Source of the DNA: Methanosarcina sp.
GTDB taxonomy: Archaea > Halobacteriota > Methanosarcinia > Methanosarcinales > Methanosarcinaceae
DNA: 64,000 bases
Assembly: GCF_028693135.1 (NCBI RefSeq)
Contig: NZ_JAQUVZ010000013.1
Location: forward strand, 1-64,000
Direction of reading: 5' to 3'
The position numbers and the translations under genes were made by a program. The notes beneath the pieces are model-generated. The model searched no databases and had not been told where the DNA came from. It saw only the letters and a program-made list of their open reading frames with translations. Shown here one piece after another: positions 1 to 59,093 of this stretch (the first letter of the stretch is position 1; each line of letters begins with the position of its first letter).

Positions 1-157
1 AGGCAATAAAAGGATAACTGTCGCCCAATACATAAAGGGTTTGAAAATGCTTGAGCGGTATGACATGAAAATGTCATGTACCGTTCTTAGAAGAGAAAGG
101 GAGAGTAATCTCCCTGACTTATTCGACCAAGATGGAACCGGAATTTTTGTTTTCTGT

Positions 158-1871: not shown

Positions 1872-2030
1872 AGGAAGCCCCTGTGCTTTACAGGCTGTCC
1901 GATAATTACTATTAGTAAGAATTAAATCCCTTCTTTTTTGATTTAAAGGCTTTAACCACCTTTTTTACACGTTTTTACCCTGAAATTGAATTGTCGGACA
2001 GCCTCTTAAGGGTGGGGTGGATGCACGCAA
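1872..2030 (+). repeat. Right-end hairpin of a TnpB element, split by a MITE
   Basis: With the MITE removed, the sequence reads GAAGCCCC-TGTG-CTTTA then GGGTGGGGTGGATG. This matches the GAAGCCCC ... GGGG-T-AG hairpin found beside the intact tnpB at 55.5 kb. No tnpB coding sequence remains next to it. Confidence 0.5.
1892..2004. mobile_element. 113-bp MITE with 16-bp terminal inverted repeats
   Basis: The ends are near-perfect inverted repeats, AGGCTGTCCGAYAATT. The interior is AT-rich, carries no gene and aligns with the reverse complement of 31938-32053. The flanks CTTTA and CTTAA suggest a 5-bp target duplication with one later change. The transposase that moves it is not in this window. 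Confidence 0.75.
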
Positions 2031-19638: not shown

Positions 19639-19719
19639 AAGAATGTAGTGAACTGCCTAAGAATGTAGTGAACTGCCCCCACCTGCCTTTTGATGAAGAC
19701 GAGGAAGGGGAATTCTCGC
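19639..19719 (-). repeat. Solo TnpB-type right end with duplicated edge
   Basis: GTGAACTGCCCCC ... GAGGAAGGGGAATTC (19668-19715) matches the hairpin found beside tnpB at 55.5 kb and its relatives. The 19 bases AAGAATGTAGTGAACTGCC occur twice in tandem (19639-19657 and 19659-19677), duplicating the outer edge. No tnpB is present nearby. Confidence 0.5.
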
Positions 19720-19946
19720 TGTGCCTCCGCGTTCCCCAAGTTAAAGTTTTTGTGTATCCTTCTCTTTTTGTTAAGGTTTTTGCAGAATAAAAAGAATATA
19801 AAATCTGCAATTAAAGAGCTTCCAAATCCGTTTCCGGATAGCAACGGAGACCTTAAAAATCTCCCGCCGCATGGAAAGTTTCCCTGCCAACAAAGCTCCT
19901 TAAGATATTGGATTACCAGTTGAAGGGGCTTATATTCGATGCCTGA

Positions 19947-31916: not shown

Positions 31917-32078
31917 TCAACTACCCCTGAGCTAAAGAGGCTGTCCGACAATTCAATTTCAGGGCAAAAACATGCAAAAAATAAGGCATATAAAGCCTTT
32001 AAATCGAAAAAGAAGGATTTTGTATATTACTGATAGTAATTGTCGGACAGCCTGTAAAGACTCAGGGGTTTCCTGCTG
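31917..32078 (-). repeat. Right-end hairpin of a TnpB element, split by a second MITE copy
   Basis: Without the MITE the sequence reads CTACCCCTGAGCTAAAG then ACTCAGGGGTTTCC, a perfect 8-bp CCCCTGAG/CTCAGGGG hairpin. It equals the ACTACCCC ... GGGG-TTCC ends near tnpB. The MITE sits in the loop, with TAAAG on both sides as an apparent target duplication. Confidence 0.6.
31938..32053. mobile_element. 116-bp MITE, second copy (inverted)
   Basis: Its ends are AGGCTGTCCGACAATT and the reverse complement, perfect over 16 bases. The interior matches 1892-2004 in inverted orientation. It has no coding capacity. Confidence 0.8.
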
Positions 32079-55534: not shown

Positions 55535-55590
55535 CGTGAACTACCCCTCCCTGTCAGGCTAGCGCCTGCTGAGGAAGGGGCTTCCTTCGA
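55535..55590 (-). repeat. Right end (reRNA/omega-RNA hairpin) of the tnpB element
   Basis: Read on the minus strand, GGAAGCCCCTTCCTC pairs across a large loop with GAGGGGTAGTTCAC. It lies just behind the tnpB stop, as expected for the 3' end and guide-RNA scaffold of an IS200/IS605-type element. It begins two bases after the AAA gene stop codon. Confidence 0.75.
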
Positions 55591-55594
55591 GTAT

Positions 55595-56860
55595 TTACTT
55601 CATTTGAAAATCAGATTCTAAGAATCTAATTCTCATCGGTAAACCTGTTTGTCGAAGATTATCTACAAATTGTAGATAGCCTATCCACAAGGCATTCTGT
55701 GATAGGAAACGTACCATGATGTTGATAGCACTATTTCTATCCCTATCAATTACATTTCCACAATCGCATTCCATAGTTCGCTTCCATAAAGGCATATCGT
55801 GCCGTTTTCCACATAGGTAGCATTCTTTGGAAGTATAGCTTTCATCAATTCTTATTACTCTTTTACCTCTGAGCTCTGCTTTATAGGTCAGGAATTCGAT
55901 GAAGCGAGATAAATAACCCTGATTTTGAGTTGATCTATTTCTGGATCTTATCCTCTTAGTTTTCTTCTGCTTTTCCCCATTGATTATTTTGGGTTGAGCC
56001 ATTTTCTTAACTTTAAGATCTCCCACAATAATTGTATTGGCTCTGGTATTTTCTATCATTTTCCTGGATAGTTTATGCTGGAAATCCTTCAGCTGATTGG
56101 ATTTTTTAGTTTCCATCACCCGATAATTTTTATGTAGTTTAAGGTATTTCCTGCTGTTTTTTATACAGTGATCTTTTTTTGATTTTATACTATCCATTTT
56201 CTTTTGCCAATATTTATCAGGTCTGGGAGTTTTGACTTCGTGGATTTTTCCTTTGAGATTGATACAGGTTACTATTTTGGTTATGCCTGCATCAATCGCC
56301 TGATAACATCCGTTGTCAGTATACACTTTGGGAAAAACATCATATATTACGGAAAGGTAAAAGTCTCCTCTGCCTTTGTAAGGATCATCATTGTAGATCT
56401 CTACCTGTCTTACATTTTCTAATTTGAGGTCAATTTCAAACTCAAGAGACGTTTTATTGACAGAGTGAGCAAATTTAATGTTTTCATTGTTAATTTTATA
56501 TCCACTCTGATTATAACATAACGTCATGAAATATTTGCTACTTCGGAACTTAGGAGGTCTTGCCTTCAGGTCTCCGTTTTTCCTGAGTGCAAAAAAGGAC
56601 TTGTAATTAGCATCAAGTTTTTTAAGTACACCCTGGAGAACTTTTGAATAAACCACCTTATATTCAGGATTATTTTCCTTGAATTCAGGCAATTTGTTCT
56701 GCTGTTCTATATACCCTACACTACGTTGTTCATTACGCCATGCGTTTTTTCTATCAGCCAGAGCAAGATTATAGATACATCTACATTTATTGGATAATTC
56801 CCAGAGAACATTAACCTGTTCATCTGTAGGATATATCTTAATCTTTTTTGTTAGCTGCAT
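55595..56860 (-). CDS. tnpB: RNA-guided endonuclease TnpB with altered RuvC-II site
   Basis: A 421-residue TnpB (IS1341-like, no tnpA in the window). It has the N-terminal TnpB fold, RuvC-I aspartate D190 in AIDAGITKIV, a four-cysteine zinc ribbon (CYLCG ... CDCG, residues 347-367) and RuvC-III D374 in DRDRNSAINI. The RuvC-II position reads IIVGDLKVKK: G280 replaces the usual catalytic Glu. E340, in RIDESYTSKEC, takes the place of the usual VDPxYTS proline and could be the substitute acid. Its end is followed by a right-end hairpin. The gene is intact and may be active as a guide-RNA nuclease. Confidence 0.9.
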   Translation of the reverse strand: MQLTKKIKIYPTDEQVNVLWELSNKCRCIYNLALADRKNAWRNEQRSVGYIEQQNKLPEFKENNPEYKVVYSKVLQGVLKKLDANYKSFFALRKNGDLKARPPKFRSSKYFMTLCYNQSGYKINNENIKFAHSVNKTSLEFEIDLKLENVRQVEIYNDDPYKGRGDFYLSVIYDVFPKVYTDNGCYQAIDAGITKIVTCINLKGKIHEVKTPRPDKYWQKKMDSIKSKKDHCIKNSRKYLKLHKNYRVMETKKSNQLKDFQHKLSRKMIENTRANTIIVGDLKVKKMAQPKIINGEKQKKTKRIRSRNRSTQNQGYLSRFIEFLTYKAELRGKRVIRIDESYTSKECYLCGKRHDMPLWKRTMECDCGNVIDRDRNSAINIMVRFLSQNALWIGYLQFVDNLRQTGLPMRIRFLESDFQMK

Positions 56861-56991
56861 GGTTACCCCGACTTTCCATATATTTTTTCAAAGAGTCAAC
56901 TGGCATAGAATATAATATCAATAAAAAGATGAAACTATGAATATATGTATTTAACTAATCACGATGAATATTAATGGGGAAGTTGACGGCT

Positions 56992-57038
56992 TTCATCCCC
57001 CACCTGTCGCTTCGCTCCGAGGAAGGGGACTTCCCGCC
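56992..57038 (-). repeat. TnpB-type hairpin end upstream of tnpB
   Basis: ATCCCCCACCTG ... GAGGAAGGGGACTTCCCGCC has the same layout and orientation as the right end at 55535. It may be the left end of the tnpB element or the right end of a lost neighbour. Confidence 0.55.
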
Positions 57039-57348
57039 TTCTCGTTAAAAGAGAAAGAACATACAAGAGATAGTGCCTTTTAATCCATTTTCTATGAGAT
57101 ATTTTCAGGCACCTCTCTTATGAATCATTTTGTATGTGTCCCTTTACTTTTGACTGCTCTTATAATTTTTCCTTATAGATTAATTTTCCAGTCAATTGAA
57201 ACTTTATTTTCAGGCTTTTGAGTTCATAAGAAGCTTTAATAATTATAACACAATAAAAATTTATTTCAGTATATATTTTTTACTCATTTACATATGTACC
57301 TGATATTTGTATATTTGGGGAATTATCCACATTGATTTGTAGAATCGG

Positions 57349-57392
57349 TGTGAACTGCCCCTGAGCCAAAGATTCAAGGGTTTTACGCTTCC
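57349..57392 (-). repeat. Solo TnpB-type right end
   Basis: GTGAACTGCCCCTGAG ... TTCAAGGG ... GCTTCC, the same pattern as at 31917 (CTACCCCTGAG, CTCAGGGG) with more changes. Confidence 0.45.
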
Positions 57393-57409
57393 TTATATAA
57401 AGATTATTC

Positions 57410-57931
57410 TTAGAATCTGTATTTGAACTCAAAGCCAAATTTATTCAAGAAGAATAATGCCATCATTATAAAAAAGCAAATGAAAGAAACAGATACAAAA
57501 GATATTACAAGATTATGAAGAAATCCGGTTTCCTGAAAATTTACTTTCATCAATGGGAATAGGCTTATTTTTTCATTATAGATTGGATAGAAGTAAGTAC
57601 AATTGGCGCCACAAGCATCATCCAGCAATAGATGAGAAAGGAAAGCAGCTTCGCCAAAAACTCCTAGATATATTGCCTTACCAACCTTCCTATATGCCAT
57701 GTATCCTGCAAGTGTTCCGAACAGGAGCGCAGAAGAACTGAATAGAAGTAAATGTGTTGGGACAGAGCCAATCCAGCAGTATTCAATAGTGCCGTTTACG
57801 AGCAAATTATAAACAACCATGATGTCTGGAAACAGTGCACATAAACTGCTTACAAGTAATAGCAACATTAAGCATTGAACCCTCAAAAGAGGCTTCCCTG
57901 TGAAAAATTGATCTGATAGTAGCATACACAA
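57410..57931 (-). CDS. YdjM/DUF457-like membrane protein, possibly shortened
   Basis: A 173-residue membrane protein with five hydrophobic segments. It carries LFPDIMVVYNLL, THLLLFSS and FLSHLLLDDACGANCTYFYPIYN, the histidine/aspartate motifs of the YdjM/DUF457 family of putative membrane metal-dependent hydrolases. The normal N-terminal segment with its first His motif is absent, and a TAG lies directly before the TTG start, so the gene may have lost its beginning. It stands between solo element ends, which agrees with rearrangement here. Confidence 0.65.
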   Translation of the reverse strand: MCMLLSDQFFTGKPLLRVQCLMLLLLVSSLCALFPDIMVVYNLLVNGTIEYCWIGSVPTHLLLFSSSALLFGTLAGYMAYRKVGKAIYLGVFGEAAFLSHLLLDDACGANCTYFYPIYNEKISLFPLMKVNFQETGFLHNLVISFVSVSFICFFIMMALFFLNKFGFEFKYRF

Positions 57932-58275
57932 CTACTGCACTGATACAGAATACAAAGAACAAAATATGTACAACTGGATAGGATATAACAAACTACTCTT
58001 TTAGAATATATTTTCGGCAGAGAACTTGTTTATTACTTAATATTTTACTGACTGTGTTTTATCACCTATTTAGTATACATATCTTAATTAAAAGTAATAA
58101 TCTCTATAAAACTGTTAGAGAAAATGTATTTAGAAACTGTTGTCACGATTCCATATAATTTGTATTCGACAGCAAATCAAAGAATGTGAGTATTATTAAT
58201 GATGGGGGTTTTGAAACTAATTTCATAACCTCGAATGTTCAAGGGGTTTGCATATATCCCAAATGTAACAATAAA
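57932..58275. other. AT-rich spacer
   Basis: No gene supported. The stretch between the shortened YdjM-like gene and the next solo element end shows no RNA structure I can name. Confidence 0.3.
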
Positions 58276-58340
58276 ACGGGAAGTTCCCTTCCTCAAAAAT
58301 CCGAGTCATCAGGTTAAGAGTTCAGGGAGGAGTAGTTCAC
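58276..58340 (+). repeat. Solo TnpB-type right end, plus orientation
   Basis: CGGGAAGTTCCCTTCCTC ... GGGAGGAGTAGTTCACG, the reverse orientation of the other ends in this cluster. No tnpB upstream. Confidence 0.5.
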
Positions 58341-58802
58341 GAAATTTGCTGACATTTCGTTCTATAGAATATCAATCAAGTAAGAGAGAATACAAAAATC
58401 ATATTTCGTTTGTTGTGCAAAACGGATTATAAGCTACTGGTCAACTACGTCCCTATTTTTTATCCGACAAACCGGAATTTCTGAGAAAGAGGCCTGCATA
58501 TCCTCCCTGTTACAGATCATTTTATGCATATTAATGGTCGACCTGAGAGAACCACTCCTAAATTCTCTTGCGAGAATGGCAACCCAGTTCTATCGAAACG
58601 CTTCAAAGGTTACTTTCGGCAGAGTTGTTGCCGACCTTATATCAGATAGAACCGATTCCGATGATAGTAGACTCAACTTAAACTGTTATCTGCTTATTGC
58701 AGTACCCTACTCCAATCTGAAAGTGTCAAAACTATCTGGTACAATATACGCAGCCGAGGCATAATAATGTTTAATGATAAAGAAAATCGAGAGTGATTAC
58801 GC

Positions 58803-58860
58803 ATTCCTCCCCACCTTTCAGCTTCGATATATCCGGCCTGTATAGGAAGGGAAATCCCGC
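58803..58860 (-). repeat. Solo TnpB-type right end
   Basis: ATTCCTCCCCACCT ... AGGAAGGGAAATCCCGC matches the layout of 56992-57038. With 58276 it encloses about 460 bases containing one open frame that I do not consider a real gene. Confidence 0.5.
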
Positions 58861-59093
58861 TCAGGCGATTGGATCTAGAAGTTTATTAAGATGTTTTTAA
58901 AAGAAAATCCCCAGCCATTCTTTAAATAGTTAAGATTTTTTTAGGACTACCAGACGTAAGTAATATTTATTCTTTAATGTTTTTCTATACTCCTGTAGCT
59001 TATATGTTTACTGTGATGTGACTTTGAAGACAACATGTATTCGAGTAAATGTTTACTTAGAATAATTATCATCTCAGGAAGGGAGTTTTGTAT

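What the first reader, a model, noticed from the sequence alone, without database searches (positions are those of the whole stretch)
55535..58860. Cluster of solo TnpB-type ends around one tnpB
Five hairpins with the GAAG-CCC ... GGGG-T-AG/ATGA layout lie within 3.3 kb (55535, 56992, 57349, 58276, 58803) beside a single tnpB. Three more are at 1872, 19639 and 31917. If such ends are guide-RNA scaffolds, solo copies could supply additional guides in trans or be relics of lost elements.
Basis: partly seen in the sequence, partly recalled or inferred. Interest (0 to 1): 0.6.

Follow-up and report, generated by a model that had tools for sequence, protein, structure and literature searches.

The report
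Fused ends of lost TnpB transposons
The scattered hairpins are the two ends of one intact TnpB transposon plus worn-down, 70-base leftovers of others; they lack most of the guide-RNA scaffold and drift like the DNA around them, so this is a known kind of transposon relic rather than a supply of extra guides.

Summary
The hairpins are real, but they are not five solo ends. 55536 and 56997 are the right and left ends of the same tnpB element (55536-57044; site empty in related Methanosarcina genomes). 58270 and 19668 are true solo copies: 69-75 nt elements joining a left-end 5' part to a right-end tail around one hairpin, with no tnpB. 57350 and 58809 are decayed ends. 1872 and 31917 are hairpins split in the loop by a 115-bp MITE. 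In this genome 27 of the 39 best hairpin matches have no tnpB beside them. Precise empty sites in relatives show that such solos are insertions after TTTAA without target duplication. The 58270 copy is also in genome G008, where the neighbouring tnpB site is empty, so it is older than that tnpB. A covariance model of the guide-RNA scaffold finds the tnpB-linked copies (89.8 bits in the window) but no intact scaffold at any solo. Solos diverge at the same rate as their flanks. So 'relics of lost elements' is supported and 'extra guides in trans' is not, for these copies. They match the terminal-only PATEs of Haloquadratum. About 450-bp tnpB-less elements elsewhere keep a complete scaffold and remain possible trans guides.

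The parts
55536..57044 (-). Complete IS200/IS605-type (IS1341-like, no tnpA inside) element carrying tnpB
   Evidence: LE and RE found, 1.51 kb; contiguous empty site in G011 (92% identity), degenerate empty sites in G008 and G010
55595..56860 (-). tnpB, 421 aa, with the rearranged RuvC-II glutamate (Ealt)
   Evidence: Pfam Cas12f1-like_TNB 9.4e-21, OrfB_IS605 1.1e-10; matches solved TnpB chains 8h1j and 8bf8; IIVGDL plus IDESYTSKECYLC
55581..55654 (-). Guide-RNA (omega RNA) scaffold upstream of the terminal hairpin, overlapping the tnpB 3' end
   Evidence: Model R2 89.8 bits, the only significant hit in the window; stem with compensatory changes
55536..55579 (-). Right-end hairpin ending TAGTTCAC
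   Evidence: R1 57.9 bits
55516..55535 (-). Predicted guide (DNA just outside the right end)
   Evidence: Position by analogy with IS200/605 TnpB loci (PMC10278001); inference
56985..57049 (-). Left end of the same element, with target TTTAA at 57045-57049
   Evidence: R1 33.7 bits; GGTGGGGGATGAAAGC tail shared with the LEs of related tnpB elements
58269..58340 (+). Solo fused element (short LE 5' part + hairpin + RE tail); left target TGTAA 58264-58268; would-be guide 58341-58360
   Evidence: R1 58.4 bits; orthologous copy in G008 with flanks 91-94% identical
19668..19740 (-). Solo fused element (long LE 5' part TTTAAC-TTGGGGAACGCGGAGGCACAGCG + hairpin + CAGTTCAC)
   Evidence: R1 66.4 bits; no tnpB within 1.5 kb
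57350..57394 (-). Degenerate right end of a different end family (GTAAAACCC..GGGGCAGTTCAC)
   Evidence: R1 15.4 bits; orthologous hairpin with further changes in G008
58803..58870 (-). Degenerate left end (GGTGGGGAGGAATGCGTAATC)
   Evidence: R1 11.2 bits, not significant alone; same tail as the LE-like sequence in C16 (locus L056); degenerate orthologue in G008
1872..2022 (+). TnpB-type end hairpin split in its loop by a MITE (1892-2004)
31917..32066 (-). Right-end hairpin (..CTCAGGGGTAGTTGAC) split in its loop by a MITE (31938-32053)

Best explanation
The window holds one complete IS200/IS605-type tnpB element plus remnants of older ones. The true solo copies (58270, 19668) are 'terminal-only' elements: the 5' part of a left end, one subterminal hairpin and the AGTTCAC tail of a right end, next to a TTTAA-type left target (TGTAA at 58270) (shown; insertion without target duplication shown on sibling copies). 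They most likely arose when the similar hairpins of LE and RE recombined or slipped and deleted the tnpB core, like a solo LTR (inferred). Some may then have moved as 70-nt units with Y1 TnpA supplied from elsewhere in the genome (inferred; two uninterrupted Y1 genes exist). Having lost the upstream scaffold, they most likely make no working TnpB guide RNA and drift neutrally. TnpB in this element probably cuts the empty site with its own 3'-overlapping guide RNA (inferred from the family).
For: Solo copies share TTTAAC-TTTGGGAGYGCRGAGGCACAGCGRGAAGTC with the LEs of full tnpB elements (L002, L175, L183, L189) and switch to the RE tail TAGTTCAC at the hairpin. Precise empty sites: the L058 and L059 sites read TTTAA|guide in three aligned relatives each. 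27 of the 39 best matches have no tnpB beside them (C80:135 moved to the linked group because one search finds a tnpB fragment there). The R2 scaffold (stem with 97% paired cells, 11 double-change cells, 0/500 shuffles) hits only tnpB-linked copies at 73.6 bits or more; best solo 17.9 bits at L071. 58270 is shared with G008, where the tnpB site is empty. Solo and decayed ends differ from G008 at 20 of 185 sites against 124 of 1434 in flanks, Fisher p 0.34. Haloquadratum ISHwa23 collapses from 1500 bp to a 52-bp PATE through a 19-bp repeat in its palindromes (PMC3119063). Three Y1 genes in the genome, two without internal stops.
Against: No site was found where one genome has the full element and another the solo; the full elements of G008 tested have empty sites, not solos, in relatives. 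So deletion in place against movement as a unit is not resolved. In typical TnpBs the 3' hairpin is the only conserved scaffold feature (PMC10278001), so a copy that keeps it is not strictly excluded as an RNA. No expression data. The selection test has low power.
Confidence: 0.85

Rival explanations
1. The solo copies are working guide RNAs that load TnpB made elsewhere and point it to extra sites in trans.
For: They keep the 3' hairpin and the TTCAC|guide boundary; the 3' hairpin is the only scaffold feature conserved across typical TnpBs (PMC10278001). The window TnpB has a plausible D-E-D triad, so it may be active.
Against: The covarying scaffold upstream is missing in every solo tested with R2; elements diverge as fast as flanks, and the two guides checked have 1 change in 20 each, no clear excess of conservation. 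Upstream sequence is LE sequence, not the tnpB 3' end from which the RNA is made.
Confidence: 0.06
2. The hairpins are REP-like palindromes kept for a host role such as transcript termination or mRNA stability.
For: They lie between genes and form strong hairpins; 55536 follows directly on the stop codon of the AAA ATPase gene.
Against: Recent, lineage-specific insertions with exact empty sites; no excess conservation; orthologous hairpins accumulate mismatches in the stem.
Confidence: 0.07
3. The 70-nt solos are a class of mobile unit amplified as such by Y1 transposase, and not remnants of individual full elements (a variant of the best explanation, not exclusive of it).
For: Two copies (C72:77058 and C66:108123) are about 96% identical at unrelated sites; solos outnumber full or decayed elements of the same long LE type about 11 to 2. 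Haloquadratum terminal-only PATEs were suspected to move.
Against: Loops differ widely among copies, some LE-like and some RE-like, which suggests several independent fusions. One hairpin instead of two has not been shown to be enough for Y1 transposition.
Confidence: 0.3

Closest known systems
Terminal-only PATEs of Haloquadratum (e.g. the 52-bp form of ISHwa23; PMC3119063)
   Same: Fused ends of an IS605-type tnpB element with the core deleted, palindrome retained, no target duplication, many copies, also hit by small mobile repeats in the palindrome
   Different: Different lineage of archaea and sequence; 69-75 nt here; the parent carries an Ealt TnpB; loss of the guide-RNA scaffold is tested here
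IS200/IS605 (IS1341-type) elements with TnpB
   Same: tnpB, LE and RE subterminal hairpins, TTTAA-type left target, guide-RNA overlapping the tnpB 3' end
   Different: tnpA absent from the window copy; related copies in other genomes have a Y1 gene upstream
REP elements and their Y1 (RAYT) transposases
   Same: Short intergenic palindromes related to IS200/IS605 ends
   Different: These copies are joined LE and RE pieces of tnpB elements; no RAYT was identified
'Ghost' Spu-1 elements around Fanzor (PMC10432273)
   Same: Copies keeping ends but lacking the nuclease gene
   Different: Eukaryotic, with inverted repeats; a different transposon type

Membership tests
IS200/IS605 tnpB element (55536-57044) | tnpB with OrfB/Cas12f-like TNB domains | tested here: met
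IS200/IS605 tnpB element (55536-57044) | Subterminal hairpins at both ends, fixed left target, no target duplication | tested here: met
   contiguous empty sites without duplication; left target TTTAA seen exactly at the L058 and L059 sites; the G008 and G011 sites of the window element have diverged (TCAG, CAAG)
IS200/IS605 tnpB element (55536-57044) | Mobilised by Y1 TnpA | not testable with these tools
   Y1 genes exist in the genome and upstream of tnpB in related elements; activity not tested
Terminal-only PATE (58270, 19668) | Fused IS605-type ends, palindrome, no coding capacity, no target duplication | tested here: met
   empty sites shown for sibling copies L058 and L059, not for 58270 or 19668 themselves (no relative with a clean empty site or matching flanks found)
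Terminal-only PATE (58270, 19668) | Derived by deletion between LE and RE repeats of a full element at the same site | tested here: inconclusive
   Hybrid anatomy supports it, but no full/solo pair at one site was found
TnpB omega RNA, solo copies | Structured scaffold upstream of the 3' hairpin | tested here: not met
   R2 finds none at 58270, 19668, 57350 or 58809; R2 covers the window's TnpB family only
TnpB omega RNA, solo copies | Transcribed and bound by TnpB | not testable with these tools
   No RNA data
Ealt (rearranged RuvC-II) TnpB | D(not P)G in RuvC-I and E six residues before the first zinc-finger Cys, canonical E lost | tested here: met
   DAG, IDESYTSKEC, IIVGDL; the full pattern matches in 15 loci of the family, the others being truncated, interrupted or not picked up by the script; the second zinc-finger pair is CxC, not the published CxxC
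TldR (nuclease-dead TnpB) | Loss of RuvC catalytic residues | tested here: not met
   An alternative glutamate is present

The most novel reading that the evidence does not exclude
Non-autonomous ~450-bp elements of the same transposon group (C78:7817 and C50:63686 in this genome, four more in G008) carry LE, RE and a complete guide-RNA scaffold almost identical to that of resident tnpB genes, each with its own guide but no tnpB. They may supply extra guides in trans to TnpB. The 70-nt solos in the window would be the worn end of the same process.
Probability: 0.2. Interest if true: 0.6.

Novelty: new member of a known kind. Interest (0 to 1): 0.33.

Why it matters
It answers, for these copies, whether scattered TnpB-type ends are a hidden supply of guides: most look like neutral scars. 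Annotating guide RNAs from the terminal hairpin alone would overcount them here by roughly three to one. It also points to a small set of elements that do keep a full scaffold and are worth testing as trans guides.

Tried and rejected
Rfam scan: only a group II intron match at 51-127. Catalytically dead TnpB (TldR-like) was considered because the canonical RuvC-II glutamate is Gly, and rejected because the alternative glutamate is conserved. One decayed element spanning 57350 (RE) to 58809 (LE) was considered because the distance is about 1.5 kb; G010 keeps 57403-58219 but lacks 58220-58875, so a single insertion does not fit. Search for tnpB remnants at 57000-58950: none. Covariation in the outer stem of the hairpin: none, it is conserved in sequence. 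Flank-joined search for full elements turned solo in relatives: none found. Literature search for Methanosarcina TnpB or IS605 PATEs gave nothing specific.

Full report
What is there. The host genome (G000, 4.2 Mb, 89 contigs; window = C77:1-64000) groups with Methanosarcina: the LE pattern was found only in Methanosarcina contigs. The tnpB at 55595-56860(-) is a TnpB by Pfam and by match to solved TnpB chains. It occurs 16 times in the genome against 0 for the reversed pattern. A covariance model R1 of the core finds 79 places at E<=0.01 in the genome, against 24 tnpB matches, and hits in 28 of 31 genomes of the genus and in 7 of 14 genera of the family.

Sorting the eight sites. 55536 (RE) and 56997 (LE) are the ends of the one tnpB element; LEs end GGGGGATGAAAG and REs end GGGGTAGTTCAC in the related tnpB elements of the genus where both were read. 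58270(+) and 19668(-) are strong, genuinely solo copies (no tnpB around 19668, and the nearest tnpB of 58270 is the separate element). 57350 and 58809 are weak matches, recognised by their tails as an RE and an LE of other end families and decaying in the G008 orthologue. 1872 and 31917 are end hairpins split in the loop by a ~115-bp MITE.

What the solos are. Typical solo copies read TTTAA|C-TTTGGGAGYGCRGAGGCACAGCGRGAAGTC-hairpin-GGGGTAGTTCAC|guide, 69-75 nt. The first 35 nt are the LE of full tnpB elements (L002, L175, L183, L189), and the last 8 nt are the RE tail. The hairpin loops resemble an LE loop in some copies and an RE loop in others, which suggests more than one crossover point (inference). 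At the L058 and L059 sites three aligned relatives each have TTTAA (TTTAA or TTAA in context) directly followed by the guide sequence, so these are precise insertions without target duplication. At R1 >= 38 bits, a script with a 600-base limit gives 11 tnpB-linked and 28 solo hits. One of the 28, C80:135, carries a tnpB fragment at the contig edge, so the corrected count is 12 and 27.

Age and constraint. G008 is orthologous to the window at 90-96%, carries 57350, 58270 and 58809, and has an empty site where the window has tnpB. Thus the solo at 58270 predates the tnpB next to it and did not come from it. Between window and G008 the three solo or decayed ends differ at 20 of 185 sites and the flanks at 124 of 1434 (Fisher p 0.34), with 1 change in 20 in each of the two guides examined. 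No sign of selection is seen, though the power is low.

Could they be guides? For the tnpB family of the window, 16 right ends align into a scaffold with a 6-bp stem (GTTTAC/GTAAAT) that shows compensatory changes: on 13 of them 97.4% of cells are paired, 11 cells have double changes, and the covariation score is 0.53 against 0.23 in shuffles, 0 of 500. A model of this part alone (R2) finds the window tnpB (89.8 bits) and other tnpB-linked copies (73.6 bits or more), and nothing significant at a solo; the best is 17.9 bits at C54:26919, a truncated right end. R2 models only this tnpB family, so scaffolds of other families were judged by eye. TnpB makes its guide RNA by processing its own mRNA (PMC10278001); the solos have no such upstream sequence. 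The caveat is that in typical TnpBs the 3' hairpin is the only conserved scaffold feature.

Where the trans-guide idea survives. C78:7817 and C50:63686 are 449- and 454-nt elements with LE, an interior without an open frame over 72 codons, and a right end whose ~105-nt scaffold is identical or nearly so to that of intact tnpB copies. G008 has four more with 97-98% identical interiors, and every one of the six has a different guide.

TnpB itself. In the subfamily the canonical RuvC-II glutamate is Gly (IIVGDL) and a glutamate stands six residues before the first zinc-finger cysteine (IDESYTSKEC), the Ealt arrangement of Fanzors and some TnpBs (PMC10711439). It is thus probably active rather than dead (inference).

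Relation to what is known. The Haloquadratum genome paper describes IS605-type elements reduced to 52-bp terminal-only PATEs by deletion between 19-bp palindrome repeats, and ~110-bp SMR-A repeats that insert in those palindromes (PMC3119063). Both behaviours recur here. The solos therefore fit a known kind. What this adds is their hybrid LE-RE anatomy in Methanosarcina, exact empty sites, an age order, and the test that they lack the guide scaffold.

Noticed in passing
window 1892-2004, 31938-32053; L197-L220: A ~115-bp MITE (TIR AGGCTGTCCGAC..GTCGGACAGCCT) has about 24 long copies in the genome; in most of the 23 examined the flanks look like the two arms of a TnpB-type end hairpin, with the MITE in the loop next to CTAAA(G/C)..GTAAAG. 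Several copies share both flanks, so they are not all independent insertions. Resembles SMR-A of Haloquadratum.
   Followed up: partly
window 55595-56860 and L002, L171-L190: TnpB subfamily with the rearranged (Ealt) RuvC-II glutamate in Methanosarcina IS200/IS605 elements; some copies in other genomes have a Y1-like tnpA directly upstream.
   Followed up: partly
window 19648-19700 and L163 (G010): Tandem duplications across the right end and start of the guide: GGCAGTTCACTACATTCTTA x2 at 19668, and GTAGTTCACAAATG x3 in the G010 copy of the C7:24689 element. Cause unknown.
   Followed up: no
C78:7817 (L074), C50:63686 (L085), G008 L228, L233, L236, L238: ~450-bp tnpB-less elements with complete guide-RNA scaffold, 95-98% identical over the four measured in full, each with a different guide.
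   Followed up: partly
window 57742-57900 against L151 1744-2076: G008 carries a further TnpB-type end (GTCAACTACCCGTCAC..) at a point where the window has none; this intergenic stretch looks like an insertion hot spot.
   Followed up: no
window 51-127: Group II intron match (Rfam RF00029, 60 bits).
   Followed up: no
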